Source: an uncultured bacterium
GTDB taxonomy: Bacteria; Bacillota; Clostridia; Lachnospirales; Lachnospiraceae
Reading direction: 5' to 3'
Length of the DNA stretch: 64,000 nucleotides
Assembly (NCBI GenBank): GCA_947647735.1
Contig: CANSLJ010000008.1
Location: forward strand, 1 to 64,000
In this document: piece after piece, positions 1 to 13,236 of the stretch
How the letters are laid out: the number at the start of each line of letters is the position of its first letter
Position numbering within the stretch: the stretch's first letter is position 1
Translations under genes and position numbers: made by a program
The notes under the pieces: model-generated
What the model was told of the DNA's origin: nothing
The model's database searches: none
What the model saw: only the letters and a program-made list of their open reading frames with translations

Positions 1-268
1 TTCCCTCTGATTTTCCGTACAGTCTGCAAAGTGTTTCAAGCTCCGTCTGCGTGAGTGTATTGGTATAAGGCTTGTAATTTTCCGTGATAAAAACCCCACC
101 GCCCTCGCCCGGCTTTGTGTAAACCGGGTAGTCAAAAGATAATGCGATAATATCATTCATTATCGTGCGCCTTGAAACATCCAGTTCCCATGCAAGCTCC
201 CTCATTGTCATGTGCCCTTTGGCAGATAAAATGCTGATGATTTCCATTCTCCGGTGTGCAGTGTCCAT
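1..268 (-). CDS. HTH (DeoR/type 11-like) transcriptional regulator, partial
   Basis: The 5' part of a regulator gene whose 3' end lies beyond the left edge of the window. The readable 89 residues start MDTAHRRMEIISIL and form a winged helix-turn-helix at about residues 5-50 (TMRELAWELDVSRRTIMNDI), followed by a basic glycine-rich wing (YTKPGEGGGVF) and the start of a linker (TLTQTELETL). The ATG follows GGGAGG at a good distance. The next gene upstream is a paralogue with the same layout, including a matching TLTQEQLE segment, so the two arose by tandem duplication. Pairs like this are common near mobilization genes of Firmicutes elements. The ligand and targets are not visible. Confidence 0.75.
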   Translation of the reverse strand, partial: MDTAHRRMEIISILSAKGHMTMRELAWELDVSRRTIMNDIIALSFDYPVYTKPGEGGGVFITENYKPYTNTLTQTELETLCRLYGKSEG

Positions 269-288
269 GCCACGCCTCCCGTCATTTT

Positions 289-627
289 CTATGTAAAACT
301 TCCGCAGTACGGTCCAAATTCATGTATGATTGACAGGACAATTTTCCTGTCCTCTGAACCACAGGTCACAGCCATTTTTTCCAAGCATTCCAACTGTTCC
401 TGCGTGAGCGTGTTCTGGTGCTGCCCCACACCGTCCACAAGGAGATAGCCGCCGTCATATCCCTGTTTTGCGATAATGGGAAGTTCTTCGCCTATGATGT
501 CAAAGTCCCTGCGTATGGCTTTCCTGCCGACACCGTACATCTTCATCATTTCCGACGTGGTCAGCTTTTTCCCCGACAGCAACATACGCTCAATATCACG
601 CCGCCGCTGGAATGTATTGTCCTTCAT
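289..627 (-). CDS. HTH (DeoR/type 11-like) transcriptional regulator, small
   Basis: A 112-aa protein with an N-terminal winged helix-turn-helix (residues about 8-60, core EMMKMYGVGRKAIRRDFDII), a wing (KQGYDGGYLLVDG) and a C-terminal helical tail that ends early compared with WYL-type regulators, so no ligand-binding domain is present. The start is supported by a near-perfect ribosome binding site (AAAGGAGGTGAAAC before ATG). It ends 20 nt before the start of the next gene, a paralogue, so the two are probably co-transcribed. The pair sits opposite mobC across the oriT-like region and may control transfer genes of the element. That role is inferred from context only. Confidence 0.75.
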   Translation of the reverse strand: MKDNTFQRRRDIERMLLSGKKLTTSEMMKMYGVGRKAIRRDFDIIGEELPIIAKQGYDGGYLLVDGVGQHQNTLTQEQLECLEKMAVTCGSEDRKIVLSIIHEFGPYCGSFT

Positions 628-738
628 GTTTCACCTCCTTTCGCTGTTTGATTCCCTGTGGGTATTATAGAAAAAGTAATGTTTCCTCTATGGCTACGTT
701 CCTCAAAAAATTTGATTATTTTTTCAAAAACGGTAAAA

Positions 739-905
739 GTTATCCCGACTTTTTTCTGAAAGAATCCCGTATTTATCCGTGCTGCAAAAAAAGTCGGGAT
801 AACGAATAGCAAGCACTGCCTGTGTTCCCTCACAGGCTTCAATTTTCCCAAGTTCCCCCGAAGCGGAAACTTGAAAAAATTGCTTGTAGGGGGGAAGTTT
901 CCCCC
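739..905. other. oriT-like hairpin-rich intergenic region
   Basis: The 420-nt gap between the regulator pair and mobC carries no convincing gene. It contains a perfect 17-bp inverted repeat (739-755 with 787-803, core GTTATCCCGAC / GTCGGGATAAC), a 7-bp hairpin (818-837, GCCTGTG / CACAGGC), an imperfect hairpin around 849-873 and a C-rich/G-rich hairpin at about 887-905. Further right, close to mobC, is a CCCCCGTAACGGGACAG stretch at about 985-1001. Inverted repeats just upstream of a relaxosome accessory gene are the usual place for a transfer origin. No nick site can be assigned from sequence alone. Confidence 0.4.
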
Positions 906-1051
906 TAACCCCCTCTGCGCTCAAAAATCACAAAATATCCTGCCAAAATTTCTGATTTTTTCACTCATTTTTTTGCATGAATATCCCCCGTAACGGGACA
1001 GAAGATTGTGTAAAATACTTTCAGCAATCCATTACAGAAAGGACGTAAAAA

Positions 1052-1393
1052 ATGGCAAACAGAGAACGCAAAAACGAGCTGAAAATATATCTAAGTGATG
1101 ACGAGCAGTACATACTGGAACAGAAAGTAAAAGCCTCCGGCATGAAAAGCAAATCCGCTTTCCTGCGCCGCCAAATTTTGTACGGTTTTGTCTATGACAT
1201 TGACTATTCCGAACTTCAGGAATACAATGCTGCGCTTGGCAAAATCGGGAATAATCTGAACCAGATAGCAAAGCGCATGAATGCCACAGGAAACGTCTAT
1301 GCCGCTGATGTAAAGCAAGTAAAAGAGCTAATGAAAAAGGTGTGGGAGACACATAAGTCCATGCTCTCAAAACAGCCTTACATGAAGCAGTAA
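1052..1393 (+). CDS. mobC: MobC-family relaxosome accessory protein
   Basis: A 113-aa basic protein of the MobC/plasmid mobilization relaxosome family. Residues about 1-45 (NELKIYLSDDEQYILEQKVK...KSAFLRRQIL) match the ribbon-helix-helix-like DNA-binding start, and the LGKIGNNLNQIAKRMNATG segment (about 65-85) is the family signature. Such proteins bind oriT and help the relaxase nick DNA during conjugative mobilization. The ATG follows AGAAAGGACG. A relaxase gene is expected immediately downstream but none is present. Instead there is a noncoding gap and an IS66 remnant, so this is probably an orphan left by deletion of a mobilizable element. Confidence 0.85.
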   Translation: MANRERKNELKIYLSDDEQYILEQKVKASGMKSKSAFLRRQILYGFVYDIDYSELQEYNAALGKIGNNLNQIAKRMNATGNVYAADVKQVKELMKKVWETHKSMLSKQPYMKQ

Positions 1394-1509
1394 ACTGAAA
1401 CAGAATTTCTGCTGAAAAATAGGGCAGTGCCAGTCAAATTTCTTTCACAATTCTGTATGCTTAAAAACACAATAAAATCTAAAATCAGACAAATTTCGCA
1501 CTATCAAAA

Positions 1510-1554
1510 AAGGTGTACCGCAATGAAGTTTTTTCCTTCCTTGCGATATACCTT
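1510..1554. other. imperfect hairpin in the gap after mobC
   Basis: AAGGTGTACCGCAA (1510-1523) pairs with TTGCGATATACCTT (1541-1554) through 13 of 14 positions, including one G-U pair. There is no T-run after it, so it is not a standard terminator. It may be an end of a lost element. Nothing else is recognisable between mobC and the IS66 remnant. Confidence 0.3.
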
Positions 1555-1673
1555 GATGTGTGCAGTATGCTATTAACTTTGATAAATTTTCTAATTCGAT
1601 ACTTATGTATTTTCCGTTTTATTTTCATTATTTGCTATGTTCCAATCTGAATGTATTTTGATACAGACTCTAA

Positions 1674-2081
1674 AGGAAAGAGTTATCAGGGAAAGGGAGC
1701 AGCAGCTTTTCTGAAGAAAAGATTGCAGAGTATGAGCAGGATTATCTGGGACTGATCAAAAAGGGACGGGAGGAGAATGAAAAAACATCCTGCAGATATG
1801 CAAGATCCGATGAGAAAAGCCTTCTCAACCGGATGGAAAAATATGCCCATAACCATCTGCTGTTCCTGCATGATCTTACAGTGCCTTTCGAGAACAACAT
1901 TTCGGAAAGGGATCTGAGGAAAGCAAAGAACAGACAGAAAATGGCGGGAGGTTTCAGGAAAGAGAGCGGACACCGGATGTACTGCTCGATCCTGACGGTC
2001 ATAGAAACATTAAAGCGGAGGGATACGGGAATCCTCGAAAATATCAGACAGTTATTCATGGGAACACCGGCTATTTTCTAG
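1674..2081 (+). pseudogene. IS66-family transposase, C-terminal fragment
   Basis: An open frame of about 135 residues that begins directly after an in-frame TAA and lacks a start. It encodes the end of an IS66 TnpC transposase: the final part of the DDE domain (HDLTVPFENNISERDLR, with the conserved Glu/Asn of the family) followed by the IS66 C-terminal segment (KMAGGFRKESGHRMYCSIL...TLKRR). Full-length TnpC is roughly four times longer, so the N-terminal zinc and catalytic parts are gone. The fragment abuts a truncated LysR gene, which suggests that insertion and later deletion removed sequence on both sides. Confidence 0.85.
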
Positions 2082-2084
2082 CCG

Positions 2085-2327
2085 GTGCTATATCCAGTTA
2101 ATCATTTGAAGGCTGAACTGTTACAAAAGGATATTGTTTTGAATCCTCATATAAAAGTACAAAGTATAGAAGCAGTAAAAAGATGTGTTATGAATAATCT
2201 GAAATTTGCAATTGTGCCCAACTATTTTGTTGTGGAAGAATTGAAAAACAACTCCTTAATGTCTATTAGAACGGAACTTGATTATATAATATATCACTCC
2301 ATTTACGTCTATCACAAAAATAAATAG
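2085..2327 (+). pseudogene. LysR-family regulator, C-terminal fragment
   Basis: An 80-residue frame that starts just 3 nt after the IS66 stop. It reads as the last part of a LysR substrate-binding domain: VQSIEAVKRCVMNNLKFAIVPNYFVVEELKNNSL is the typical effector-domain segment in which the regulator is said to be 'always active, invisible to' a given position, followed by the closing strand YIIYHSIYVYHKNK. No DNA-binding domain is present and no good ribosome binding site precedes the nominal GTG. This is most likely the 3' scar of a gene cut by the IS66 insertion or deletion. Confidence 0.7.
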
Positions 2328-2409
2328 ATAAGCCCGCAAATGGAGTTAGCAGAGGATTTATTAATAAAGTTTGTACGCAGATATTTTCTTAAATAATAAT
2401 ATTTCGTTA

Positions 2410-3336
2410 TCAATATCCTACCCATTCCGGTTGTCCTTCTCCCACAGCCTTTTCTACAGTTGAAATCCAATCTGCAATCTGCTGTAACCGAATCTGCAGT
2501 TCCTCGAAAGTGACCTCACCCTCTTCTGCCTGATTCCATAATTCTGCAAGTGCATACTTCACTCCATCTTCAGGATAAAACACACTGTCATGGTGCAAAT
2601 TTTGTAATAAAGCACCTGTTCCATCCTTATCACACTTTCCATTAATAGAAATATGTTTCGCTTCCCATCCCTCTACTGTTCTCCTAACACGATAAGTATC
2701 TGTATGTCCATGACGTCTTGTGTACACTCTAAAAGTCATCTCTCTGTCCAAAGTCAAATCACCCTTAACATTCATAACTGCTCCTTTTCCCAAAATATCT
2801 TTGCGCATTTGTTGCAACATATGATAATGGTCGTAAAAGTCTACGATCCCATTCTCCGGTATTCTCCCGCTATTCACCATTAAATATTCTGGTATAATCG
2901 GTAACCGTCCCCAATGAATTACCTGCACAACATGTTGTAGTTGAGCTTTATACATCTCATTCAAGGTTTTATAATCAAAATCCCAATGCTTTCTAGATTC
3001 ATACTTATCCTCAAAACGCCCAAAAGTCTTTTCAAACAGCACCTGAGCATCTTCCAAATTCCCCTTCGCCTGGTCATGCCGCTTAATAACTTCCTTTACC
3101 CAATAGCTCATCTTTTTTGCTAAAACATATTTGGATCCTGTCATATCAAAAAACTCATTACAATAAAGCAACAAATCTCTTTGCCTAAAGTAAAAATATT
3201 GGGTAATTTCAGTTCGACTGTATTGACGATTCAACTCATACCCATTATCCAAAATTCCCTTGACAATAGAAATTTTTAGGTTCCTCTTTCTCGCTTCACA
3301 CTCCAATTGTTCATCATCCAACCAAATTTCTTTCAT
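2410..3336 (-). CDS. uncharacterised 308-aa protein, last gene of conflict operon
   Basis: I do not recognise this family. The 308-aa protein has no signal peptide or membrane segment. It starts with a charged region (MKEIWLDDEQLECEARKRN), has a mixed middle with several aromatic residues (about 45-60 and 110-165), a strand-rich part (LTLDREMTFRVYTRRHGHTD, about 195-225) and an acidic helical C-terminus (about 255-300) ending in WVGY. CDKDGTGAL at about 235-243 could be a metal-binding loop. Its ATG overlaps the stop of the radical SAM gene by 4 nt (ATGA), so translation is coupled and the product likely works with that enzyme, as partner, substrate or adaptor. This role is inference. Confidence 0.8.
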   Translation of the reverse strand: MKEIWLDDEQLECEARKRNLKISIVKGILDNGYELNRQYSRTEITQYFYFRQRDLLLYCNEFFDMTGSKYVLAKKMSYWVKEVIKRHDQAKGNLEDAQVLFEKTFGRFEDKYESRKHWDFDYKTLNEMYKAQLQHVVQVIHWGRLPIIPEYLMVNSGRIPENGIVDFYDHYHMLQQMRKDILGKGAVMNVKGDLTLDREMTFRVYTRRHGHTDTYRVRRTVEGWEAKHISINGKCDKDGTGALLQNLHHDSVFYPEDGVKYALAELWNQAEEGEVTFEELQIRLQQIADWISTVEKAVGEGQPEWVGY

Positions 3337-4394
3337 CTCTCTTTCCCTTTTCTACACTTATTAATATTAAAAATCTGACATCCCCCATGGCAAAAGGGAT
3401 ATTGATTACATTCACTACAATCATTAATGGGATATTCCTGCTTTCCTGGTGTTTTCAGAGCATTTCTCATCTTCAAAAACAATTCTCCTGTCTGCCATGC
3501 CTCCTGCAAAGTCATTTTGGTTAAATCAATCCCAGACCATTCTGTATCACGCATAAAAGAACAAGGATACATAAACGAATCTTCCGCAATAAATGCAGAA
3601 AATCTAGCCGCTTCACAAAACTCAACAGTCTCAAGTATCAATTTGGGTTCAGATATTGTCAAATAAGAAATCATACAGCTGTCAAAACCTATTTTGCAGT
3701 CCTTAATTTGATTTACAGCATTAAGAAATTCCTGAAGATTATCGTCATCCGTTAAACACCAATCATCTGTACTATGTATAGGCTTATAATTCAAAAAAAT
3801 AATGGCATTGATTTGTTGTAACACTTCCGTTTCTTCATGCAGTAGTCTAATCGCCTCTTTGATTGTCTGCTTGCTTAATAAAAAGTGAATATTTACTTTG
3901 ATATCATACTTTTTACACTCCGATATCACTTTTTGTGCATCTAAATAAGGGGCGTACCAGCTAACTGCCAACGCGCCACAAAATTCCTTTGTTGCCCGAT
4001 AGATTTCTTCTGTCATCCCTTGCCCATTAGTGGTATAGGAAGGAATAATAAAATGTCTTCTGGTCTGTTCCAAAATCTGTATAAAATTCGGATGTTGATT
4101 GGGATTGCCACCGCCTAAAGCGATCTGCAATACTCCCGCCTGCTGTGCTTGTTCCAATAATCTGCAATATTCCACCAACTTCATATGTTGGCCCAAAGGA
4201 TTCGATGCACGATAGCAGAAGTTGCATCCTCTTTCGCAATAATTAGTTATTGAAATATCCAACAACTCTGGTCCCTTTAAGTTACAAAAAGGATCTTCTC
4301 CAGAATAGCCCATTCGAATGAAAGCTCCTGACTTTCTGTCAAAAAATATGATATACCCACTTTCTTGATACCTTCTAAACAGTACATCCCCCAC
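3333..4394 (-). CDS. radical SAM/SPASM-domain enzyme
   Basis: A 353-aa radical SAM protein. The [4Fe-4S]-SAM cluster cysteines are C53, C57 and C60 in NYCERGCNFCYRAS (CX3CX2C), and a GGGNP motif (about 94-98) takes the place of the usual GGEP SAM-binding motif. The C-terminus (about 270-350) is a cysteine-rich SPASM-like region (FMYPCSF; CSECNQYPFCHGGC), which binds extra Fe-S clusters in enzymes that modify peptides or proteins. The start is GTG with a GGAGG about 10 nt upstream inside the preceding gene. It lies between the NSSS protein and the 308-aa gene, overlapping the latter. The best guess is post-translational modification of an operon neighbour. The chemistry is unknown. Confidence 0.88.
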   Translation of the reverse strand: MGDVLFRRYQESGYIIFFDRKSGAFIRMGYSGEDPFCNLKGPELLDISITNYCERGCNFCYRASNPLGQHMKLVEYCRLLEQAQQAGVLQIALGGGNPNQHPNFIQILEQTRRHFIIPSYTTNGQGMTEEIYRATKEFCGALAVSWYAPYLDAQKVISECKKYDIKVNIHFLLSKQTIKEAIRLLHEETEVLQQINAIIFLNYKPIHSTDDWCLTDDDNLQEFLNAVNQIKDCKIGFDSCMISYLTISEPKLILETVEFCEAARFSAFIAEDSFMYPCSFMRDTEWSGIDLTKMTLQEAWQTGELFLKMRNALKTPGKQEYPINDCSECNQYPFCHGGCQIFNINKCRKGKER

Positions 4395-4396
4395 AA

Positions 4397-4813
4397 CTAC
4401 CAGCCTCCAATTTGACCATTAAAGTAAATATCCTCTTCGCACAATACAAAACTCTCCATACAAAAATATACTTCGGCAGAAGAATATCCATCAGAACTTA
4501 ATTTTCCAAAATAAACTTTTCTTCCCTCCTGCAAAAGCTGATTTACTTTTTGAACAACTTCATTGGAATACCCATTTTCTGTCAAAAAAGTCCTGATTTC
4601 CTTTGGTTCCTTATTACATTCTTTCATATAGGAAAATAAATCCTGTTTATTTTTATTTATTGCTTCAAATAAGTCTTCAAAAATTATATTCATAGGAGAT
4701 TCGCCGTCAACCCCAATAGCTTTCAAAAAACTCTTCTCACTCCAATTTTCTTTCATCGAAATGATAAAAGAGGTTGAGGAACTATTTGTCACAAAATCTT
4801 GCCTTATTTTCAT
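4397..4813 (-). CDS. 138-aa NSSS-leader protein, candidate radical SAM substrate
   Basis: A small cytoplasmic protein that opens with MKIRQDFVTNSSSTSFI, a recurrent N-terminal motif (K-I-R-x-x-F-V-[ST]-N-S-S-S-[ST]-S-F) seen in many otherwise unrelated small bacterial proteins. The rest is acidic and helical (about 25-95), then strand-forming (GRKVYFGKLSSDGYSSAEVYF), and it ends in FNGQIGGW. Its ATG overlaps the stop of the 134-aa gene by 4 nt, and the ribosome binding site of the radical SAM gene lies inside its last codons, so the three are translationally coupled. A conserved leader-like start directly before a SPASM enzyme makes it the prime substrate candidate, but no core or cleavage site is evident. 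Confidence 0.8.
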   Translation of the reverse strand: MKIRQDFVTNSSSTSFIISMKENWSEKSFLKAIGVDGESPMNIIFEDLFEAINKNKQDLFSYMKECNKEPKEIRTFLTENGYSNEVVQKVNQLLQEGRKVYFGKLSSDGYSSAEVYFCMESFVLCEEDIYFNGQIGGW

Positions 4814-5214
4814 AAATTAATATCCTCCAGTACTTGATTCAATATTTTTATTCCTTTCTCATCATACCTTATTATATTTTCAACATTGTAACTACTAAAT
4901 GACGGTCGCAATTTAAGAAGAGTCTGATTTTGGTTTAACTCAAACAAAGCAATCTCATCTCTTTCGAGAAGTTCCTTTTGGTACAGATAAGTTTCAAAAT
5001 CACCATATTCTTGCGCATAATAATCCTGGTATTCCTGTCTCAAGTCCTTGGAATATCGAAAAAAATCCCAGAAGATTTTAAGAGAATAACAATATGCAAA
5101 AGAATTTTTCCTCATACTCAAATGTCGGCAAAGTTCTCTTTCAAAGCCTTCCAATGAAAACATCTTTCGAGTCACACAATAATACGTTTCTTCTCCAAAT
5201 AAAATAATCTTCAT
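4810..5214 (-). CDS. uncharacterised 134-aa protein of conflict operon
   Basis: I do not recognise this protein. It has 134 residues, no signal peptide or membrane segment, an N-terminal strand (MKIILFGEETYYCVT), a basic helical region (about 25-60), a very aromatic and acidic stretch (EYQDYYAQEYGDFETYLYQ, about 60-80) and a C-terminal region with LKLRPSFSSYNVENIIRYDEKG. The ATG follows AGGAG at normal distance and lies about 10 nt after the protease-STAND stop. It sits between the sensor/effector pair and the modification genes, so it may be an adaptor or regulator. That is a positional inference only. Confidence 0.8.
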   Translation of the reverse strand: MKIILFGEETYYCVTRKMFSLEGFERELCRHLSMRKNSFAYCYSLKIFWDFFRYSKDLRQEYQDYYAQEYGDFETYLYQKELLERDEIALFELNQNQTLLKLRPSFSSYNVENIIRYDEKGIKILNQVLEDINL

Positions 5215-5223
5215 ACCCTTCTC

Positions 5224-8013
5224 CTATTCTATCTTATCCCCCAATACAAATTCAAAAACTGTTGACAGATTCTGCAAAGTACGATTTTTATAACGATTGT
5301 TTTCATAAAGATTATGTAGTCTTTCATCCTGATTACCTAGTTCTAACCCCAATAGACCTTCCAGAATATCTATGACATTTCCCTGAATCAAACTACTATC
5401 ATGTGTATTCATTTCTTGTAGCAATACTACTGCTATATCAGGCGTATTCTGATATAAATTCTCCCATAATTGCAACGTATCTGAATGACGCAACTCAAAA
5501 AGATATATTGTCAACCTAAACAACTCTCTGTGAACTAAATTCCACTCTTCCTCCCCCATACAACCCAACAAGTCTCGTACTAAATAATTATATGGGTATA
5601 CCGCTTTTGGGGAATCTTGATATAGCAACTTATAGTCATCTTTTATATGAACTCCAAACATTTCTCGCATAAAACGATGATATTCTCCCATGTCAACAAT
5701 TATTTCATCCATAAGTTCAAATAGAATTTTGATATTCAGGTTACGAAAGCAGTCACAGTCATAACGCATAAGCAAATAATTAACTACCCGACGTCCGTAG
5801 CTTCCATGCTGCAAAACTTGCTCCTTCCATTTTGCAACATCTTCATAAGACAAATAATCGTCTTGTACTCCCCAAATATATAACCAATACAATTCATCAT
5901 ATTCAGGTGCTTTTTCAACGATAGGCCCCAAATCTTTCTGATATCTCGTCCGGGACAAATAAAATACATACTTCTGAACGCCCTCTCGGATCGTCAGGTT
6001 GTTCTCTCGCATTCCTTTCCAAAACTGCATAAAAACATCTTCTTTACTAAAATGTTCCAACACATAATTAGTAATACAAAAATCACGAAACTCATCAAAT
6101 GTAAAACTAATGGTCATACTCTTTTTTTCAAGAATGCCGGACTTGATTATCTGCTCATCTTTAAAAATCACCTCATTCTCCAGCATCTTAATCAAAATTC
6201 TTTCTTCCTCTTGAGTAAAAACACTGACCGGTACATGAAAAAATTCCTTTTTTTCAATCATGTACCCGACTATTTTATCCAGCAACATATATAATATATT
6301 ATTTTGATTTAATACAACTTCATTTCCATGATACTCCTTGGCCTTTTTTTCAATATATTGCTGGAACACCTCATATTTATACACATCATATAAATATATT
6401 TGCTGTTGATGCTCATTTACCTCACAAAAAAATCGAAGCAACAACACATCATCAGTAAGCAAATCATAAGCTCTCTGCGACAGAGCATTTGGTCTAATAG
6501 ATATATCAAAATACTGCATATATCCACTGAAGATTCTATTTTTGAAGTCATCACCAGTATGCCACATATCCATTTTTTTATAACGTTCCTGATAACTACC
6601 TTCTTCAATAACTCCGAATCTTTCCTGAAACAATTCATTTCTTGTTGACATTATCACTTTAATATAAGGATATTGCTCACATTCTTCCAAGAAATCTCGC
6701 ATACACTGACCAAAATTTTCTATCAACGTATTTTCATTCAACCCATCAATGATTATCATTACTGGACGCTTTGTCCGCTCCCATTCCCGCAACAATATCT
6801 TATGTACATACTCCATTGAATATTGCTCATTCATTGTCAGTTGTTTATGAATATATAACATGGGGCTTTGGTTGAACTGATATGCATTATAATATAAAAC
6901 CAGATATCCTTTTCTAATCAAAAAATTAGTGGTAAAATCACATAGAAAGTTCGTTTTTCCCTGCCCTGCATCTTTCGTAAGCAATAGATATTTTTTTGAA
7001 GCATACTCCAGATTTTCTGCCCATTCTCCCATGGCAAACCTAATCGAGCTATTTAATAAATTTTGCTTAATGTTATAAAATTCCGCCCAAACTACTTCTC
7101 GCTCATATATACGCTCCTCTAACAAACGAATATTATCAACAGCCATTTGAATCTTTTTTGTTAATTCAAGAGTGACCTTCTCTACATTATCAACTGTTAC
7201 TGATACATTTAAGCTGTTGAAGTCAATTTCATTCCCTTCTTTTTTCAATACTGCATTAATTTCTTGAAAATCTAATTTCATTATTTCTCTTAATGTCTTG
7301 GTCACAAACAGAAAAGGTTCTGCAAAATACCGAGCCTTCTCTTTATAATCCCCTTCCTCCACAAAAATGCTAGGAATATACTTCTTACTATGCAAATTCT
7401 TGTTAAGTTGCATCTCCGTATACGTCTTTGATTTCTCAAATATTTGAATCAGATACTCATTTCCACATTTAGTCGCTTCAGGCAGTAAAGGTTTGAACAT
7501 TTTTACTGTAGTCATCCGAATTCCAAGTAAACCCATACGATTGGAAGATTGCATTTGTAAGATTCCCACGATTCTCCCGTCACAAAATACTGGTGAACCA
7601 GATAGTCCCACATAATCTTCCGCACTTCCTGTAACAATATTTATCAATGAACAATCCCATACATTTGAAGTTTCTACAGTATGAAATCCCGTTCCTGTGA
7701 TCTCATGTGTTTTTTGCTGTGTACCGATATATCCTTGAATTAACCAGTTAGAAGATTCGTCTAATATTTCGTCGTCAGAAAAAGCTTGTACCTTCCAAGG
7801 AAAATTTTTCTCTGCTTCCAATAGGGCAACACCATTCATAGAATTGTTTTTCTTAATAGGTATTTCACATCCTGATATTTCAACAGTGTGTCCATTCCCA
7901 CATACCACATGCTCTGCTGTCAAAATCCATGTGTCCGTAATAATAATTCCGGTTCCATACTGTATTACTTCATCGTTATAATAACTTTTGACCCTTACAA
8001 TATAGTTTTCCAT
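5224..8013 (-). CDS. trypsin-like protease fused to NACHT/STAND NTPase
   Basis: A 929-aa protein. Residues about 15-180 form a trypsin/HtrA-like protease domain with His35 (LTAEHVV) and Ser138 in GLSGSPVF. The usual catalytic Asp position (x-D-I-A-L) reads G61-V-A-L-L. A helical linker includes KKYIPSIFVE (about 210-219). The NTPase has Walker A DAGQGKT (348-354) and Walker B VMIIIDGLNE (418-427), then winged-helix/helical regions and a long helical C-terminus (about 600-929) suited to sensing. STAND proteins of this layout act as immune receptors: ligand binding and NTP hydrolysis drive oligomerisation that activates the effector domain, here the protease. GAGG precedes the ATG. The gene follows the MBL gene by 10 nt. 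It resembles AVAST-type defence NTPases (from memory). Confidence 0.9.
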   Translation of the reverse strand: MENYIVRVKSYYNDEVIQYGTGIIITDTWILTAEHVVCGNGHTVEISGCEIPIKKNNSMNGVALLEAEKNFPWKVQAFSDDEILDESSNWLIQGYIGTQQKTHEITGTGFHTVETSNVWDCSLINIVTGSAEDYVGLSGSPVFCDGRIVGILQMQSSNRMGLLGIRMTTVKMFKPLLPEATKCGNEYLIQIFEKSKTYTEMQLNKNLHSKKYIPSIFVEEGDYKEKARYFAEPFLFVTKTLREIMKLDFQEINAVLKKEGNEIDFNSLNVSVTVDNVEKVTLELTKKIQMAVDNIRLLEERIYEREVVWAEFYNIKQNLLNSSIRFAMGEWAENLEYASKKYLLLTKDAGQGKTNFLCDFTTNFLIRKGYLVLYYNAYQFNQSPMLYIHKQLTMNEQYSMEYVHKILLREWERTKRPVMIIIDGLNENTLIENFGQCMRDFLEECEQYPYIKVIMSTRNELFQERFGVIEEGSYQERYKKMDMWHTGDDFKNRIFSGYMQYFDISIRPNALSQRAYDLLTDDVLLLRFFCEVNEHQQQIYLYDVYKYEVFQQYIEKKAKEYHGNEVVLNQNNILYMLLDKIVGYMIEKKEFFHVPVSVFTQEEERILIKMLENEVIFKDEQIIKSGILEKKSMTISFTFDEFRDFCITNYVLEHFSKEDVFMQFWKGMRENNLTIREGVQKYVFYLSRTRYQKDLGPIVEKAPEYDELYWLYIWGVQDDYLSYEDVAKWKEQVLQHGSYGRRVVNYLLMRYDCDCFRNLNIKILFELMDEIIVDMGEYHRFMREMFGVHIKDDYKLLYQDSPKAVYPYNYLVRDLLGCMGEEEWNLVHRELFRLTIYLFELRHSDTLQLWENLYQNTPDIAVVLLQEMNTHDSSLIQGNVIDILEGLLGLELGNQDERLHNLYENNRYKNRTLQNLSTVFEFVLGDKIE

Positions 8014-8023
8014 TTCTATACCT

Positions 8024-9202
8024 CTATACTTCTATCTTTCTTTGACCATAAACGATTTGATATCCATATCTTTCCTGCAATTTTTCCAATATATCCTTTT
8101 GAGGAATATCATAGTTACAATATAACACCTTATTTCCTGCTAAAATTGCCTGAGCTAATGTTTCTTTTTCCGGGTGTCTTTTTCCACGTCCTCCATTTGT
8201 AGAAATCAATAATACATCTGCCCGAGAATAATTCATTAATGCTCTATTAGGATAAGCTGTTCCATGATGAGACAATTTAATGACCTGATATTTTTCTTCC
8301 AAATATTCATACCATAGCGCACTATCTGAGTCACCAGTAAACAACATTTTCAAATCCTTGTATTGAATTTCTATGACGATAGATGCCCTATTAATTGCAT
8401 TCATAGGAGCCATACTTGAAGTACCTAACCAATTCTCCAAATTCTCGTTAGTTGCAGATATAAACTCTTCTCTATTGCTTCTTTCACTCTCCAACTCCAT
8501 AAGCAGTTCAAATAATTTCATAAAATGAGAATCTTTTGAAATAGCATAATCCACACCAAAATTACGAATCATTTCCAAATTTAATGTATCTGCCAATTTA
8601 TCCAATTCCTTGTCAGTAGGTGAAAGTACTATTAATTTACATGCCCCTATTGGGATACTTCTTGATAAAATTGAAGAGCGATTCATATCTATCCGTCTTA
8701 CTATTCCATCTAAAAATTGAGCATTCAAACAATATCCATTTTTTAAACATAATTCTTCAAAACTTATACTATGCTTTGCTGATATTTCCTGACTTTCACC
8801 CTGAACCTGCAGCAGAAGATCATTTAAAATATTCTCTTTTATCTGTTTCTGTTTCTCAGAAAGAGACCTTATCCTTTGAGTAAACTCTGATCGTTTTAAA
8901 AGAGTATTAAAAAAACCATTAAACCAAACATTATATATGGGAATAATATTGGGATTATTAGCTTGACCATTTTCTTCAAGAAGTGCAATTGCACCTTCTA
9001 TATGGTCTTGATCAATATGCGTAATTAATAACAATATTACCCAACATCCTCTATTTTTTAACTCAATAAGCAGTGGACGCAAATATTTCGTATAAGTTGA
9101 TTTAAAACCACAGTCTATAATAATACATTCTTTGTTTACAAATTCAAGAACGAAGCAGTCTCCTGCCATTGCTGGCAGGAAGTGTATGATACAATTTTTC
9201 AT
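8024..9202 (-). CDS. ComEC/Rec2-type metallo-beta-lactamase-fold hydrolase
   Basis: A 392-aa soluble MBL-fold protein and the first gene of the conflict operon. Metal ligands are visible: HIDQDH (H62, D64, D66, H67), MLFTGDSD and KLSHHGTAYPN. These are the D-D and HHG signatures of the ComEC/Rec2 subgroup, which often cleaves nucleic-acid or nucleotide phosphodiesters. I chose the ATG that follows AGGGA at 8 nt. An upstream in-frame TTG at 9232 has no ribosome binding site and overlaps the predicted transcription start. An MBL protein paired with a protease-STAND protein matches, as I recall, the AVAST type 1 arrangement. Candidate roles are nuclease effector or second-messenger phosphodiesterase. 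Confidence 0.88.
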   Translation of the reverse strand: MKNCIIHFLPAMAGDCFVLEFVNKECIIIDCGFKSTYTKYLRPLLIELKNRGCWVILLLITHIDQDHIEGAIALLEENGQANNPNIIPIYNVWFNGFFNTLLKRSEFTQRIRSLSEKQKQIKENILNDLLLQVQGESQEISAKHSISFEELCLKNGYCLNAQFLDGIVRRIDMNRSSILSRSIPIGACKLIVLSPTDKELDKLADTLNLEMIRNFGVDYAISKDSHFMKLFELLMELESERSNREEFISATNENLENWLGTSSMAPMNAINRASIVIEIQYKDLKMLFTGDSDSALWYEYLEEKYQVIKLSHHGTAYPNRALMNYSRADVLLISTNGGRGKRHPEKETLAQAILAGNKVLYCNYDIPQKDILEKLQERYGYQIVYGQRKIEV

Positions 9203-9239
9203 AGCTGGTATCCCTAAATTTACTAAGTCCAATAAAATA

Positions 9240-9269
9240 ATTATATTGCAAAATTAGTAACCTTATCAA
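9240..9269 (-). promoter_or_regulatory. sigma-A-type promoter of the conflict operon
   Basis: On the minus strand, TTGATA (9264-9269) and TATAAT (9240-9245) are separated by 18 nt. The predicted start lies near 9233, giving a leader of about 30 nt before the MBL ATG. No operator-like palindrome is obvious around it, so expression may be constitutive. Confidence 0.6.
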
Positions 9270-9475
9270 ATAAATATACTGTTTAATATATAGCATTAGA
9301 TTATAAAATGTATTTGTCACTATTTAATCTTTGTCATTTCAAGGCACTTTCAAAAAATGGTGTAGTAGTGCTGTAGTAAACGCCTTGTTTTGCCGTGAAA
9401 CTATTGATTTTACAAGCTTTTCCGGAATACTTCAAAATACTGCCGTGATACACAAAAAATTTATAACAGTTTTAG

Positions 9476-9852
9476 TTATCTTCCAAATCCACTTATCAAC
9501 AACTTACAGATTAATGCCCCTCTTGCATTATTTTCCTTTTGCTCTTCAGACTTTGCATTTTCATTCATTACTTCTTCCATAACCTCAATAGCTGTTCTCC
9601 ATTCTTGCTTAGTACAACGTAGTGGTCGTTGATTTGCTAATCTTTTCTTTAACGAAACCAAAACCTTTCTCGCTTTATTGTAAGCATCAATCATAGGATT
9701 TTTTCTTGCAATAATACTCAAGACATAGTCCAAAACATCATTGGCCATTGCAACCGTAATACTGTTTGTTTCATTACTAAACAAAACAGTAATGGGGGTA
9801 AAATATTGTATATCTTTATGAATCTTATACCCATGAAAAGCATATCACTCAC
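9476..9852 (-). pseudogene. small unknown gene with an apparent frameshift
   Basis: An AGGAGG at 9860-9865 lies 7 nt before a GTG at 9852 that reads VSDMLF. The frame then runs into a different coding phase. Shifting phase at the four-base A-run 9836-9839 (one extra base needed) joins it to a long frame, HGYKIHKDIQYFTP...NDVLDYVLSIIARKNP, which continues to LLISGFGR. The rebuilt protein would be about 126 aa, hydrophilic and lysine-rich, of no family I recognise. Either a 1-nt deletion inactivated the gene or this is a sequencing slip in a homopolymer. Without correction, only a fragment of about 102 aa from a TTG lacking a ribosome binding site is open. Confidence 0.5.
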
Positions 9853-9980
9853 TCCAATACCTCCTAACACTGTTTTTATTCTCCCTTTGTAAATATTTTA
9901 GCATAACTTCACAAAATATTTGTACCATTTTTGTTTATCCACTAACATAAATAAGCAAAAAAATCATTTCCTACTAAAAT

Positions 9981-10081
9981 GGTCAAGCCATTTCCTATGA
10001 CTTGACCGTTCTTTACTCTTGGTATTAAGGCTCAACTTATAATTTCTAACTTCAATTCCACGTACCAATTACGTACCAATT
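9981..10081. repeat. hairpin and 11-bp tandem repeat at island edge
   Basis: The AT-rich noncoding stretch between the frameshifted gene and rsgA holds a hairpin (GGTCAAG 9981-9987 with CTTGACC 10001-10007) and two perfect adjacent copies of ACGTACCAATT (10060-10070 and 10071-10081). The AT-rich island changes to core-like composition close to here, beside the 3' end of rsgA, so these may be the remains of an integration site. No integrase gene is left. I see nothing else in 9866-10239. Confidence 0.35.
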
Positions 10082-10239
10082 TCCCATAAACCCTTATGAA
10101 GATATAAAGAATTACATAGAAATCAAATTGCTCTCAACCCTAGTATTTATCAACCTTTAATCCATTTTATAGAGATACATAGATTTACATGAAACAGCCT
10201 CGTAAATACGATTCCTAATTTCATTTTATCAGTTTCCTC

Positions 10240-11118
10240 CTAATATTTCTTCCTGCCTTTCAATTCCTCATACAGCACAGTATAATTATGATACCTTACA
10301 TCACTGATCTTCCCATCCGCCAGGGCCTCCTTCACGCCGCATCCCGGCTCGCTCACATGCACACAGCCGCGGAATTTACACCGCTCCTCATACTGCCTGA
10401 ATTCCGGATAAAAATCTCTCAGATCCTCCTTCTCCATATCAAAAAGCTGCAGAGAAGAAAACCCCGGCGTATCCATGATATAGCTTTCTTTATCCAAAGC
10501 AAACAGTTCCGAATGACGTGTGGTATGCCTGCCTCTGTCGATCTTCTCGCTGATCGCGCCGGTCTCCATCTCCGCCTGAGGATGCAGATAGTTGATCAGG
10601 GATGATTTCCCCACGCCGCTGGGGCCTGCCACCGTGGTGGTCCTGCCCTGCAGGAGACTGCGCACTTCCTCAAGCCCCTCCTGCTCCTTCACACTGATAA
10701 AGAGCACTCGATAACCGCAGGTCTCATAGGCGCTCCGCAAAGCTTCCCGCTCCTTCCCGGAAGCGATATCACTTTTATTAAAACAGATCACGCAGGGCAG
10801 CTTCTGCTGCTCCATCATGATCAGGAAACGATCCAGCAGATTAAAATTCGGTTCCGGTTTCAGGATCGCAAATATCACCATCGCCTGATCGATATTGGCA
10901 ACCGCCGGACGGATCAGCCTGCTCCTGCGGGGCAGGATCCTCGTGATATTTCCTGTCCTTTCCTCCGCATCCAGCACCTCCAGCTCCACATCATCCCCCA
11001 CAAGAGGCTTCACATTGTCCTTCCTGAAGATACCCCTTGCCTTGCATTCATAAATGCTGAGATCCTCCGCATGCACATAATAGAATCCCGCGATCCCCTT
11101 GATTATCTTTCCCTGCAT
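10240..11118 (-). CDS. rsgA: small ribosomal subunit biogenesis GTPase RsgA
   Basis: A 292-aa circularly permuted GTPase that acts in late 30S subunit maturation. An N-terminal OB fold (about 1-65) is followed by the permuted G domain: NKSD (G4) at about 112, GPSGVGKSSLIN (G1) at about 164 and DTPGF (G3) at about 214. The C-terminal zinc finger has the expected Cys/His pattern (CKFRGCVHVSEPGC, about 247-260). Length is normal. The gene follows prkC by about 33 nt, as in B. subtilis. The rpe/thiN genes that often follow are absent here, and instead the AT-rich island begins. Confidence 0.97.
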   Translation of the reverse strand: MQGKIIKGIAGFYYVHAEDLSIYECKARGIFRKDNVKPLVGDDVELEVLDAEERTGNITRILPRRSRLIRPAVANIDQAMVIFAILKPEPNFNLLDRFLIMMEQQKLPCVICFNKSDIASGKEREALRSAYETCGYRVLFISVKEQEGLEEVRSLLQGRTTTVAGPSGVGKSSLINYLHPQAEMETGAISEKIDRGRHTTRHSELFALDKESYIMDTPGFSSLQLFDMEKEDLRDFYPEFRQYEERCKFRGCVHVSEPGCGVKEALADGKISDVRYHNYTVLYEELKGRKKY

Positions 11119-11151
11119 ATGGCATCTACTCTCTTCGGCATACTGGAACGG

Positions 11152-13236
11152 TTACCTCTCTTCTGTAAATTCTATGGTTCTCTCTATGGTCTTCTCCGTT
11201 GTGACAGGTTCGGGCGCCTCACCATCCGCTCCGGCCTCAGGCACTTTTGTGATCGTATATTGAAACGTGATCTTACCCTTTGCAGCCTTGATCCCGCTGT
11301 AATTTACCGCGATCGGGAAGGAAGCCGTCTCTGTATCCAGAAGCTTCGTGCCATCATCCGTCACAATGCTGACTTTCACCTTGATACCTGTTCCGTCCAC
11401 ATACTCCGGATCTTCATCCCTCGTAGGGCCGCTGATATTCCCGCTGTAACTGTAGGTCGCCGCCTTGCCGCCCATACTGATCTTGATATCGATAGCTGTT
11501 CCCGGGTCCACAAAAGAACCCACGGAATAACTCTGATAGCACACCTGCCCTTCCGGGAAGTCCTCGCTGTTCATCTGGCCCACCGTGCCGAGCTGCAGCC
11601 CTGCCTCGATCAGCATCGCCAGAACCTCATCCTCCTCTTTTCCCATCAGCTCCGGCACCCTGATCTTGGAATCCTCCGCGCCGGTGCTGACCACGATCGT
11701 TACCACCGAACCCTTCGGCGCCTTCGTCCCGCTCTCCGGGTTCTGGGAGATCACGTAATTATTCTCCACCGTGGAGGAGGAACTTTCATTCCTGTTTACC
11801 ACAAAACCCGCTTTTTCCAGCGTATTTTTCGCCTCTTCATAGGTGATGCCGGTAGCCTTCGGAACGCTCACGCCCTCCGTTCCCGAACTGACTGTCAGCG
11901 TGATCACCGTCCCCGGGTCCACCATGATGCCTTCATCTATGGAGGCGCTGATCACCTGATTCTGAGGATAGGCCGCATTTTCCACATACTTGATCTCGAC
12001 CTTCAGCCCCATCTTCTCCAGTCTGTCCTGCGCGGTCTTTACCGCCATACCGGTAACGCCTATCATCTCCACCTGCTCAGTCTGTTCTTCCTGCTGCGTA
12101 TCATCATCCCGGCTGCCGCTCAGATGGAACAGCCCAAGCGCCCTGCCCACCAGCACGATCACGATACAGCCGATGATCAGTGCCGCCACGATGGCGAGCA
12201 CAGTGGTGATCTTTTCCATACGGGGATCGTAATCCTCGTCATAGTCGTCCTCTTCCTCCTCACCGTGGTCGGTATGCCTCGCCCGGTTAAGCCGCATGGA
12301 TTCCTCCATATTGTCCTTCGCCGCAGAAGCCTTCTTGATCCGCTCCATCTCCCGCTCCGTGATCATACGGGTGGATGCCTGTCTGTCCGGCTCCATCACC
12401 TTCACGAAGTCCTCATCGGGATTCAGCAGAGACTGTTTCAGGTCATCGATCAGTTCCGCCATGGACTGATATCTTCGATCCGGGCTCTTCTGGCAGCACT
12501 TAAAAACGATCTGCTCCACGCTGACCGGGATCTCCGGCACGTACTCTCTGGGTGAAGGCAGCTCTTCCTGAATATGTTTAATGGCGATCGCCACGGTGGT
12601 CTCCCCGTTAAAAGGCACCCTTCCCGTGAGCATTTCAAACATGGTGATACCGAGAGAATAGATATCGCTCTTCTCATCGCTGTAGCCGCCCCTCGCCTGC
12701 TCCGGCGATGTATAGTGGACAGAGCCCATCACATTCGATGTGATCGTATTGCTGGTGGCAGCCTTGGCGATGCCGAAGTCCGTCACCTTCACTTTGCCCT
12801 CTTTGGATATCATGATATTCTGAGGCTTGATGTCTCTGTGAATGATATGGTTGTTATGGGCAGCCTCGATGCCCATGGAAACCTGAATCGCTATACTGAT
12901 GGCTTCCTTCACGGAAAGCCTTGCTTTCTTTTCGATATACTTTTTTAACGTGATGCCCTCCACCATTTCCATCACGAAATAGTAGATGCCGTTCTCCTCC
13001 CCGACGTCATACACATTTACGATATTGGGATGCATCAATCCCGCCGCCGCCTGGGCTTCCGTGCGGAACTTGGATACAAAATTCGCGTTCTCGGAAAACT
13101 CCTGTTTTAACACCTTGATCGCCACAAACCTGTTCAGCTTATGGCATTTCGCTTTATAGACATCCGACATGCCGCCGGTTCCGATCTTTTCTAAGATCTC
13201 ATAGCGGTCTCCTATCATCATTCCTATTTTAATCAT
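11152..13236 (-). CDS. prkC: PASTA-domain serine/threonine protein kinase
   Basis: A 694-aa membrane kinase of the PknB/PrkC/StkP family that senses muropeptides or cell-wall state and phosphorylates cytoplasmic targets. The kinase domain is residues about 10-275, with the glycine loop IGTGGMSDVY, catalytic HRDIKPQNIM and DFG (VTDFGIAKA). An acidic juxtamembrane part (EEEEDDYDEDYD) precedes one membrane segment at about 343-363 (VLAIVAALIIGCIVIVLVG). Three PASTA repeats follow (about 385-450, 455-520, 522-590), then a C-terminal extension of about 100 aa with no name. Start: GGAG about 8 nt before ATG. It is 14 nt downstream of the PP2C phosphatase gene that reverses its action. Confidence 0.96.
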   Translation of the reverse strand: MIKIGMMIGDRYEILEKIGTGGMSDVYKAKCHKLNRFVAIKVLKQEFSENANFVSKFRTEAQAAAGLMHPNIVNVYDVGEENGIYYFVMEMVEGITLKKYIEKKARLSVKEAISIAIQVSMGIEAAHNNHIIHRDIKPQNIMISKEGKVKVTDFGIAKAATSNTITSNVMGSVHYTSPEQARGGYSDEKSDIYSLGITMFEMLTGRVPFNGETTVAIAIKHIQEELPSPREYVPEIPVSVEQIVFKCCQKSPDRRYQSMAELIDDLKQSLLNPDEDFVKVMEPDRQASTRMITEREMERIKKASAAKDNMEESMRLNRARHTDHGEEEEDDYDEDYDPRMEKITTVLAIVAALIIGCIVIVLVGRALGLFHLSGSRDDDTQQEEQTEQVEMIGVTGMAVKTAQDRLEKMGLKVEIKYVENAAYPQNQVISASIDEGIMVDPGTVITLTVSSGTEGVSVPKATGITYEEAKNTLEKAGFVVNRNESSSSTVENNYVISQNPESGTKAPKGSVVTIVVSTGAEDSKIRVPELMGKEEDEVLAMLIEAGLQLGTVGQMNSEDFPEGQVCYQSYSVGSFVDPGTAIDIKISMGGKAATYSYSGNISGPTRDEDPEYVDGTGIKVKVSIVTDDGTKLLDTETASFPIAVNYSGIKAAKGKITFQYTITKVPEAGADGEAPEPVTTEKTIERTIEFTEER

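What the first reader, a model, noticed from the sequence alone, without database searches (positions are those of the whole stretch)
2410..9202. Six-gene operon: MBL-fold protein, protease-STAND NTPase and a radical SAM modification cassette
Seen: one promoter, six minus-strand genes with gaps of about 10 nt or less and ATGA overlaps, in an AT-rich island with mobC and IS66 remains. Known: an MBL-fold protein with a protease-linked STAND NTPase recalls AVAST type 1 antiphage systems (from memory); SPASM radical SAM enzymes modify peptides or proteins. Inferred: a defence or conflict system in which a small protein is radically modified and sensed, cleaved or used as regulator. I do not know a described system with all six genes.
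Basis: partly seen in the sequence, partly recalled or inferred. Interest (0 to 1): 0.92.

Follow-up and report, generated by a model that had tools for sequence, protein, structure and literature searches.

The report
STAND defence operon with radical-SAM-modified subunit
A bacterium carries a six-gene operon, found again in the same order in other species, that looks like an antiphage alarm system whose small partner protein is probably chemically modified by a dedicated radical-SAM enzyme; the same N-terminal tag sits on many otherwise different proteins of viruses of bacteria.

Summary
The operon is real and recurs. Of 69 fetched radical-SAM loci, 62 have at least 3.5 kb upstream; 60 of these keep one order: STAND NTPase, small protein (SP1), tagged small protein, radical SAM/SPASM enzyme, across many phyla. 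The NTPase N-terminus varies: SMEK nuclease, trypsin, hydrolase, helical. The full six-gene form recurs in five loci (one MBL gene cut by a contig end) and one further genome. It is not AVAST type 1 (MBL below the Avs1a cut-off, STAND half the length of Avs1b, no avs1c), though the MBL-protease pair and both gating-loop isoleucines match. The tagged protein starts MKIRQDFVTNSSSTSF; 69 of 70 profile hits keep NSSST. The same tag heads 119 distinct ORFs of 47 BLAST families in viral contigs; 13 of 14 such contigs of at least 100 kb encode this enzyme. I infer an Avs-like abortive defence whose radical-SAM-modified subunit licenses or senses. Modification, defence activity and trigger are unproven. 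Ten literature searches showed no description.

The parts
8024..9202 (-). MBL-fold protein (392 aa), predicted gated pro-nuclease
   Evidence: NF041809 Avs1a 219.3 bits (cut-off 420), Lactamase_B 29.4 bits; HxDxDH and HHG motifs read in the alignment
8783..8785 (-). Codon of Ile140, first gating-loop isoleucine
   Evidence: Same alignment column as Ile136 (L114) and Ile143 (L113) of annotated Avs1a proteins
8459..8461 (-). Codon of Ile248, second gating-loop isoleucine
   Evidence: Same alignment column as Ile237 (L114) and Ile246 (L113) of annotated Avs1a proteins
5224..8013 (-). Trypsin-STAND NTPase (929 aa)
   Evidence: Trypsin_2/Trypsin and PADLOC Avs2 matches; AGQGKT Walker A, IIIDGLNE Walker B
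7561..7956 (-). Trypsin-like domain (residues 20-151); His and GLSGSP Ser present, Asn at the usual Asp column
6952..6969 (-). Walker A of the STAND NTPase (residues 349-354)
4810..5214 (-). SP1, 134-aa small protein, distant paralogue of the tagged protein without the tag
   Evidence: hhalign 97.6%, E 3.8e-12; relatives lie between STAND and tagged gene in 60 of 62 adequate loci
4397..4813 (-). Tagged 138-aa protein, candidate substrate of the radical SAM enzyme
   Evidence: N-terminal MKIRQDFVTNSSSTSF; 69 of 70 profile hits keep NSSST
4760..4813 (-). NSSS tag (residues 1-18)
   Evidence: Mean modal frequency 0.856 in residues 1-16 against 0.425 in the rest of 61 rows (rows were chosen with a motif that includes NSSST)
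3333..4394 (-). Radical SAM/SPASM enzyme (353 aa)
   Evidence: Radical_SAM 49.9 bits, TIGR04085 SPASM 29.4 bits
4215..4238 (-). CX3CX2C radical SAM cluster motif (C53, C57, C60)
   Evidence: Present in 69 of 69 radical SAM ORFs
3354..3617 (-). SPASM region with seven conserved cysteines (C260-C347)
   Evidence: Invariant in the five-row alignment A1; a six-cysteine SPASM pattern in 67 of 69 ORFs, not in L050 and L067
2410..3336 (-). 308-aa accessory protein with M1E1E6-like C-terminal half
   Evidence: PF21648 26.3 bits, cut-off 27; six-row family A11, plus L252
9240..9269 (-). Promoter-like site TTGATA-18-TATAAT
   Evidence: consensus match only
1052..1393 (+). MobC/NikA mobilisation protein (context)
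1833..2081 (+). IS66 transposase fragment (context)

Best explanation
An Avs-like (STAND/NLR-type) abortive antiphage system with a radical-SAM-matured accessory subunit. Steps: (1) The radical SAM/SPASM enzyme modifies the conserved Asn/Ser-rich N-terminal tag of the 138-aa protein [inferred]. (2) The matured protein and its untagged paralogue SP1 act with the short C-terminal half of the STAND NTPase, in place of the long C-terminal sensor of Avs proteins, and keep it poised or report infection [inferred]. (3) On infection the NTPase oligomerises and switches on whatever effector is fused to its N-terminus [inferred from Avs; the variety of effectors is shown]. (4) In this operon the effector is a trypsin that cuts two gating loops of the co-encoded MBL pro-nuclease, which then degrades DNA and stops the infected cell [mechanism shown for Avs1 and Hachiman by others; here the gene pair and both loop isoleucines are shown, activity is not]. 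(5) The 308-aa protein is a clade-specific accessory of unknown role.
For: Order STAND-SP1-tagged-rSAM in 60 of 62 loci with at least 3.5 kb upstream of the enzyme, of 69 examined; in 57 all gaps are under 80 nt. Varied N-termini: SMEK 30, trypsin 10 plus the split L067, others, named for SMEK, hydrolase, NNH5 and nucleoside-phosphorylase-type effectors. The STAND core hits Avs2 models at the NTPase only. Reciprocity: on plasmids the same 7 records hold the closest enzymes (37-42% identity) and the STAND relatives; in 398 genomes of the phylum the 3 full-length STAND relatives have the cassette, and the 5 NTPase-only matches (Avs2-sized) have no tagged protein, SP1 or enzyme within at least 2.3 kb of the gene. 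The MBL matches Avs1a/LmuA and keeps both gating isoleucines (mechanism in PMC12799240, outline and passages read). Tag and enzyme co-occur: 4 of 4 family genomes with an enzyme match below 1e-40 carry DFVTNSSS; 5 of 5 Straboviridae phages whose enzyme match covers 75-95% of the query carry the tag and 0 of 3 T4-type phages without the enzyme do; 13 of 14 tagged viral contigs of at least 100 kb encode the enzyme. Nearest solved structure over most of the enzyme is 5v1q, which I recall to be the peptide maturase SuiB. Flanking genes hit 181 PADLOC models against 19 for control genes. Five loci come from viral contigs.
Against: No chemistry, binding or phage assay exists. L038, L039 and L042 have tagged protein and enzyme without a STAND gene in the DNA held. 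L048 has the enzyme and a tagged-protein relative that lacks the tag, 101 bases from a contig end. The usual catalytic Asp column of the trypsin is Asn in this copy and His, Glu or Lys in several relatives, so protease activity is uncertain. The tag-enzyme pair is also common in viruses, where it cannot serve this host defence. Effector type tracks the enzyme tree, so free recent swapping is not shown. G114 has an enzyme match (5e-24) but no tag in 18 kb.
Confidence: 0.56

Rival explanations
1. Decoy or guard reading. Many phages carry this enzyme and tagged proteins; the host's tagged protein imitates a phage substrate, and the STAND complex fires when the phage's modification machinery, or its inhibition, alters the decoy.
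For: Viral contigs carry 119 distinct tagged ORFs in 47 BLAST families and 13 of 14 large contigs encode the enzyme. Besides 3 that belong to defence operons, 10 of the 119 match a profile of the defence protein's body without the tag at E up to 0.001, best 9e-9. Tagged proteins also occur in phages RB43, Lw1, Miller, leE and Matisse.
Against: The host operon brings its own enzyme, which a pure decoy would not need. Most viral bodies (106 of 119) show no match to the defence body at that level. No host-phage pair was matched.
Confidence: 0.19
2. The tagged protein is itself a RiPP-like toxin or effector, matured by the radical SAM enzyme and released or unmasked by the STAND protease.
For: SPASM enzymes of this type mature peptides (established knowledge); a protease is encoded in the same operon.
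Against: The cassette is most often linked to non-protease effectors such as SMEK. Effector diversity sits at the STAND N-terminus. The tagged protein is conserved to its end, with a C-terminal Trp in 54 of 61 rows, which does not look like a toxin precursor.
Confidence: 0.1
3. Ordinary AVAST type 1 system next to an unrelated radical SAM cassette.
For: MBL matches Avs1a, and the trypsin domain resembles that of one Avs1b.
Against: Fails Avs1 membership (score, length, avs1c); the cassette is co-inherited with the STAND across phyla and effectors.
Confidence: 0.04
4. A conserved conflict or stress system that is not antiphage, for example plasmid exclusion or programmed death after another stress.
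For: Several loci lie on plasmids and near mobility genes; no phage assay exists.
Against: Effector set, Avs-like NTPase and PADLOC-rich flanks point to antiphage defence.
Confidence: 0.11

Closest known systems
AVAST type 1 (Avs1a-Avs1b-Avs1c)
   Same: MBL gene directly upstream of a trypsin-STAND gene; conserved gating-loop isoleucines in the MBL
   Different: STAND is 929 aa against 1939 and 1910 aa in the two loci opened; no avs1c; BLAST aligns only the protease, to one of two Avs1b proteins (E 7e-5); adds SP1, tagged protein, radical SAM and 308-aa gene
Avs2-type STAND NTPases
   Same: NTPase core matches the PADLOC Avs2 model PDLC02164 (71.7 bits here, 48.6-98.9 in ten relatives); varied N-terminal effectors
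   Different: Those matches end at positions 469-781 of the 1504-position model; the long C-terminal part is absent; three further genes accompany it
Nuclease-protease pairs of Hachiman, Lamassu, DRT and AVAST, and caspase-nuclease canu loci (Tuck et al., PMC12799240; outline and passages read)
   Same: Same MBL pro-nuclease plus fused trypsin logic
   Different: The main text has no occurrence of 'radical'; here the pair is one of several effectors of a radical SAM-linked STAND system
RiPP/SPASM peptide maturases (SuiB, PqqE, SkfB) and anaerobic sulfatase maturases (the last recalled)
   Same: CX3CX2C core plus seven-cysteine SPASM; profile match to 5v1q over 53-338 of 348 positions
   Different: Candidate substrate is a 138-aa protein carrying an N-terminal tag shared with many otherwise different proteins, not a short precursor peptide
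Prokaryotic viperins (pVip)
   Same: Radical SAM enzyme in defence (44.5 bits to the PADLOC model)
   Different: Viperin makes modified nucleotides and lacks SPASM and a tagged partner (recalled); the match covers residues 48-199, the shared radical SAM core

Membership tests
AVAST type 1 | MBL reaches the curated Avs1a score (NF041809, cut-off 420 bits) | tested here: not met
   219.3 bits
AVAST type 1 | Avs1b of about 1900 aa with long C-terminal half | tested here: not met
   929 aa; two annotated Avs1 loci have 1939 and 1910 aa
AVAST type 1 | avs1c small gene after avs1b | tested here: not met
   No Avs1c model among matches of P0001, P0003, P0004; no BLAST match of the window proteins to two Avs1c proteins
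AVAST type 1 | Two conserved gating-loop isoleucines in the MBL | tested here: met
   Ile140 and Ile248 align with Ile136/Ile237 (L114) and Ile143/Ile246 (L113); EpiAvs1a I134 and I234 are named in PMC12799240, whose sequence I did not have
Nuclease-protease pair | MBL gene immediately upstream of a trypsin fused to a defence enzyme | tested here: met
   10-nt gap; same arrangement in the MBL-bearing relatives, with the trypsin as a separate ORF in L067
Nuclease-protease pair | Intact His-Asp-Ser triad | tested here: inconclusive
   His and Ser present; the Asp column is Asn here, Asp in L037, L040, L041, L046, other residues in L043-L045, L047, L079
STAND NTPase (NACHT/Avs kind) | Walker A and B motifs and STAND-family match | tested here: met
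   AGQGKT, IIIDGLNE, STRNE; Avs2 71.7 bits; Pfam NACHT only 13.6 bits in P0005 but above cut-off in relative L049
SPASM radical SAM peptide/protein maturase | CX3CX2C and seven SPASM cysteines | tested here: met
   TIGR04085 29.4 bits, cut-off 27
SPASM radical SAM peptide/protein maturase | Modifies a cognate peptide or protein | not testable with these tools
   Only co-occurrence with the tag is shown
Antiphage defence system | Protects cells from phages | not testable with these tools
   Inferred from homology and context
PADLOC-catalogued system with these genes | Small proteins, 308-aa protein and radical SAM covered by a defence model | tested here: not met
   No PADLOC match up to E 1 for P0001, P0003, P0004; P0002 only to viperin models and two weak matches

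The most novel reading that the evidence does not exclude
An N-terminal tag (M-K-x-[KR]-x-[DG]-F-[VI]-[TS]-N-S-S-S-x-x-[FY]) and one SPASM radical SAM family form a general protein-modification system of bacteria and large phages with many different substrates. A widespread class of NLR-like immune systems has built it into its sensing core, so that immunity depends on a radical post-translational modification of a partner protein.
Probability: 0.45. Interest if true: 0.93.

Novelty: new variant of a known kind. Interest (0 to 1): 0.86.

Why it matters
If right, bacterial STAND immunity has a branch in which the long built-in sensor is replaced by a small protein matured by radical chemistry, linking two fields that, in the papers I could search, have not met: NLR-like defence and RiPP-type radical SAM enzymology. 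The shared tag gives a ready handle: one mass-spectrometry experiment on an E. coli phage such as RB43 could show what the enzyme does, and many unannotated large-phage proteins would gain a common processing step.

Tried and rejected
Plain AVAST type 1 was rejected on score, length and missing avs1c. Chance junction was rejected on recurrent order and reciprocity. Known-family names for SP1, the tagged protein and the 308-aa protein: none beyond a sub-threshold M1E1E6-like match for the 308-aa protein and a weak phrog_7397 match of residues 1-31 of the tagged protein, that is, of the tag. PDB sequence searches of the tagged-protein and SP1 profiles gave only E of 0.05 or more, and P0005 and P0006 found nothing. 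No RNA family or tRNA in window 1-12000. A viral scan with P0005 alone matched nothing. The flank test for defence islands used 130 of 298 flanking ORFs (the nearest ones, leaving out the very nearest, L065:1990-5712, because of the residue cap) and 130 of 318 control ORFs (random) from the same 29 genomes, control regions lying from about 12 kb to several hundred kb away or on another contig. It is weak: one protein can hit many PADLOC models, the output does not count distinct proteins, only 25 of the 181 families are shown, and the control set also hit restriction, methyltransferase, QueC, Mad3, PDC and viperin-kinase models. Literature, ten searches: FVTNSSS (one unrelated paper); radical SAM with STAND NTPase and defense system (35); SMEK domain (36); radical SAM with AVAST (39); with SPASM and anti-phage (40, none); with NSSS (41, none); avs1 or protease-STAND (47, 20 of 96 listed); radical SAM with antiphage and maturase (63); NSSSSSF (73, none); radical SAM with NACHT and phage (100). 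Nothing in the listings showed this system. Passages read: PMC12799240 (also outline), PMC7159879 (a radical SAM in vWA-MoxR systems, different), PMC10853773, PMC13356809, PMC11291487, PMC10732462. The library holds no bioRxiv preprints and few subscription papers, so an unseen description is possible.
Full report
What is there. Six minus-strand genes lie at 9202-2410 with gaps of 10, 9, -4, 2 and -4 nt. In order: an MBL-fold protein; a 929-aa protein with an N-terminal trypsin domain and a STAND NTPase; a 134-aa protein (SP1); a 138-aa protein starting MKIRQDFVTNSSSTSFII; a radical SAM/SPASM enzyme; a 308-aa protein. GC is 31-40% in 1001-10000 against 42-58% from 10 to 30 kb. MobC/NikA, an IS66 fragment and a LysR-type fragment lie on the other strand; rsgA and a PASTA kinase gene follow after 10.2 kb. 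The contig starts at window base 1, so the left end of the island is unseen.

Recurrence. A protein search on plasmids found seven records with 37-42% identity to the radical SAM enzyme, and 15 with 22-39% over mostly shorter or weaker matches. The four of the seven that I opened show SMEK-STAND, about 121 aa, about 131 aa with the same N-terminus, radical SAM, in that order; in L032 the 121-aa gene is unannotated and its start unclear, and in L034 the STAND gene is split. With an alignment of these four enzymes and the window's I scanned the species-genome collection (60 loci) and viral contigs (5 loci); both scans need an exact match to a short peptide pattern, so they sample rather than exhaust. 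Profiles run over the ORFs of the 69 loci (4 plasmid, 60 genome, 5 viral) gave: STAND+SP1+tagged+rSAM in 52, the same plus MBL and trypsin in 6, plus the 308-aa gene as well in 5, and incomplete sets in 6 (cut-offs are mine and lenient for SP1, E below 0.01). Of the 62 loci with at least 3.5 kb upstream of the enzyme, 60 have all three partners in order. In 57 all gaps are under 80 nt; the other three are L032 (unclear SP1 start) and the near-identical L045 and L047, whose tagged ORF is short. L038 and L039 have tagged protein and enzyme only. Of the 7 loci with less DNA, L042 has two tagged proteins and the enzyme, L048, L062 and L084 are cut by contig ends, and three have the set.

Reciprocity. 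STAND relatives on plasmids (E up to 1e-5) are the same seven records that hold the closest enzymes; a second STAND query added only a 28%-coverage match in Halobacterium. A third query with a different N-terminus matched 37 records: the seven again and 30 others, of which 13 are listed, 12 of them over N-terminal residues 14-259 only and one (Haloplanus) over 417-743. In 398 genomes of the phylum, 8 matched the STAND alignment at 1e-10. Three match over the whole length (the window, G670, G858), all with the tagged protein just downstream. Five match over the NTPase only, in frames of 1404-1548 aa; in 12-13 kb around these genes no tagged protein, SP1 or enzyme was found at E up to 0.001. G670 has the exact six-gene operon and G858 the five-gene form without the 308-aa gene.

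Modularity. N-terminal parts of the STAND proteins cluster into SMEK (30), trypsin (10), a mixed helical group (8), short (3), an L060/L066 pair and five singles. Pfam and PADLOC name SMEK_N in L033, a serine-esterase/PGAP1-like hydrolase in L091, NNH5 in L068 and a nucleoside-phosphorylase-type effector in L096; L061 is transglutaminase-like below cut-off. SMEK is called a nuclease domain of short Argonaute systems (PMC10810196, abstract in the listing). In the enzyme tree (67 rows; L047, L058, L084 left out) effector type follows clade: 5 label changes for 6 groups, the minimum possible, with 7 rows in no group and three long-branch warnings. The SMEK clade spans Pseudomonadota, Acidobacteriota, Thermodesulfobacteriota and one archaeal bin. 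Among the loci of that tree the 308-aa gene is confined to the six-row clade that holds the window (support 99/93). A lone relative sits on an Exiguobacterium plasmid beside an FRG-domain gene without the cassette.

Comparison with avs1. Two annotated AVAST type 1 loci were opened: avs1a MBL, a 1939- or 1910-aa protease, avs1c of 88 or 82 aa. The window MBL is 28-30% identical to their Avs1a and scores 219 bits against a cut-off of 420; the STAND aligns only over the protease, and to one of the two Avs1b proteins only. In Tuck et al. (PMC12799240; outline and passages read) Avs1a is a gated pro-nuclease opened by the partner protease at loop isoleucines. The window MBL has isoleucine (140, 248) in the same columns as the two annotated Avs1a proteins. 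So the effector arm is very probably the same; the sensing arm is not. The protease keeps His and Ser, but the Asp column holds Asn here and varies in relatives, which leaves its activity open.

The tag. 69 of 70 profile hits of the 138-aa family keep NSSST; the exception, L048, starts 101 bases from a contig end and shows no tag in that frame. In the 61-row alignment the first 16 residues have a mean modal frequency of 0.856 against 0.425 for the rest; rows were chosen with a pattern that includes NSSST, so those five columns are fixed by choice. Cys118 is kept in 59 of 61 rows and a C-terminal Trp in 54 of 61. SP1 is a distant paralogue (hhalign 97.6%) without the tag. In 200 genomes of the host family, the DNA pattern for DFVTNSSS matched six: four true (window genome, G131, G143, G192), one with a stop in the motif (G009) and one NSTS (G179); the four are exactly those with an enzyme match below 1e-40. 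Of two weaker enzyme matches, G194 carries DYVTNSSSSSF and G114 shows no tag in 18 kb. Of ten tagged bodies from L162-L166 and phage Matisse, only L164 resembles the defence body at E below 0.01 (4e-6).

Phages. The enzyme matches 187 phage records. A whole-record pattern search found tags in 5 of 5 Straboviridae phages whose match covers 75-95% of the query, 0 of 2 phages with partial matches (58% and 25%) and 0 of 3 T4-type phages without the enzyme. A viral scan with the tagged-protein alignment gave 47 loci on 43 contigs, 14 of them at least 100 kb and 8 at least 200 kb; many match over the tag alone, and three are the defence operons L098-L100 again. They hold 130 tagged ORFs of 60 residues or more, 119 distinct; in 127 of 130 a start codon lies exactly six codons before the F. 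Columns that the search pattern did not fix are strongly biased: K/R at tag position 2 in 119 of 119, K/R at 4 in 119, D/G at 6 in 114, F/Y at 16 in 119. Bodies fall into 47 single-linkage BLAST families. These are not all unrelated: besides the three defence proteins, 10 of the 119 match a profile of the defence body without the tag at E up to 0.001. All 14 contigs of at least 100 kb were tested: 13 encode the enzyme; the exception G511 may be a fragment. A looser pattern met one match, not at a protein start with the tag's context, in 406,029 bases of 29 control regions.

How it probably works. See the best explanation. Shown: gene order, co-inheritance, varied effectors, intact enzyme motifs, tag-enzyme co-occurrence, gating isoleucines. 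Inferred: that the enzyme modifies the tag, which residue and how, that SP1 and the tagged protein serve the STAND as its sensor or licence, and that the trigger is phage infection. The missing long C-terminal half of the STAND, set against the 1504-position Avs2 model and Avs1b of about 1900 aa, is the main reason for placing sensing in the small proteins.

Defence context. Flanking ORFs (130 of 298) hit 181 PADLOC models at 1e-20, among them type I and IV restriction, methyltransferases, SIR2, HerA, PtuA and PDC-S02, against 19 for 130 of 318 control ORFs from the same 29 genomes, which also include restriction and methyltransferase models. This is suggestive, not a count of genes.

Novelty. 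No PADLOC, NCBIfam or Pfam model reached its cut-off or a convincing score for the three unnamed proteins, and ten literature searches showed no such system, within the limits of the library. I rate it a new variant of a known kind (Avs-like STAND defence). The tag system as a whole would be categorically new if the chemistry is confirmed.

Noticed in passing
L170-L216 (43 viral contigs, 4 to 548 kb): Arrays of up to eight counted tagged ORFs per stretch, mostly with different bodies, in several contigs within a few kb of the radical SAM gene: a phage-encoded multi-substrate modification system.
   Followed up: partly
L162-L167: A sibling radical SAM type, next to tagged proteins in L162-L166, with unusual cysteine spacing (GHCVHGASGLCIKSGVQCYQ in L165) at the cluster motif. 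L165 is part of a 378-kb contig that looks phage-like by eye.
   Followed up: partly
L038, L039, L042: One to three tagged proteins plus the enzyme without a STAND gene in the DNA held, nested among trypsin-type rows of the enzyme tree.
   Followed up: partly
window 7561-7956 and L043-L045, L047, L079: The usual catalytic Asp column of the trypsin domain holds Asn (window), His, Glu or Lys.
   Followed up: partly
L169 (Exiguobacterium plasmid), 6803-7720: A 308-aa-protein relative (31% identity) beside an FRG-domain gene, without MBL, STAND or radical SAM genes annotated nearby.
   Followed up: no
L115 (Lysinibacillus plasmid), 7992-12325: Two-gene MBL plus NACHT protein (1039 aa) without the other genes annotated nearby.
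   Followed up: no
window 2085-2327 +: Fragment of a LysR substrate-binding domain (27.2 bits, cut-off 28) between the IS66 remnant and the operon.
   Followed up: no
window 4397-4402 - and relatives: The tagged protein ends in Trp in 54 of 61 relatives, a second fixed end beside the N-terminal tag.
   Followed up: no
L045 and L047, 8572-8895: The tagged ORF is short (107 aa) and leaves a 93-nt gap before the enzyme, which may mean a frameshift in these two near-identical loci.
   Followed up: no
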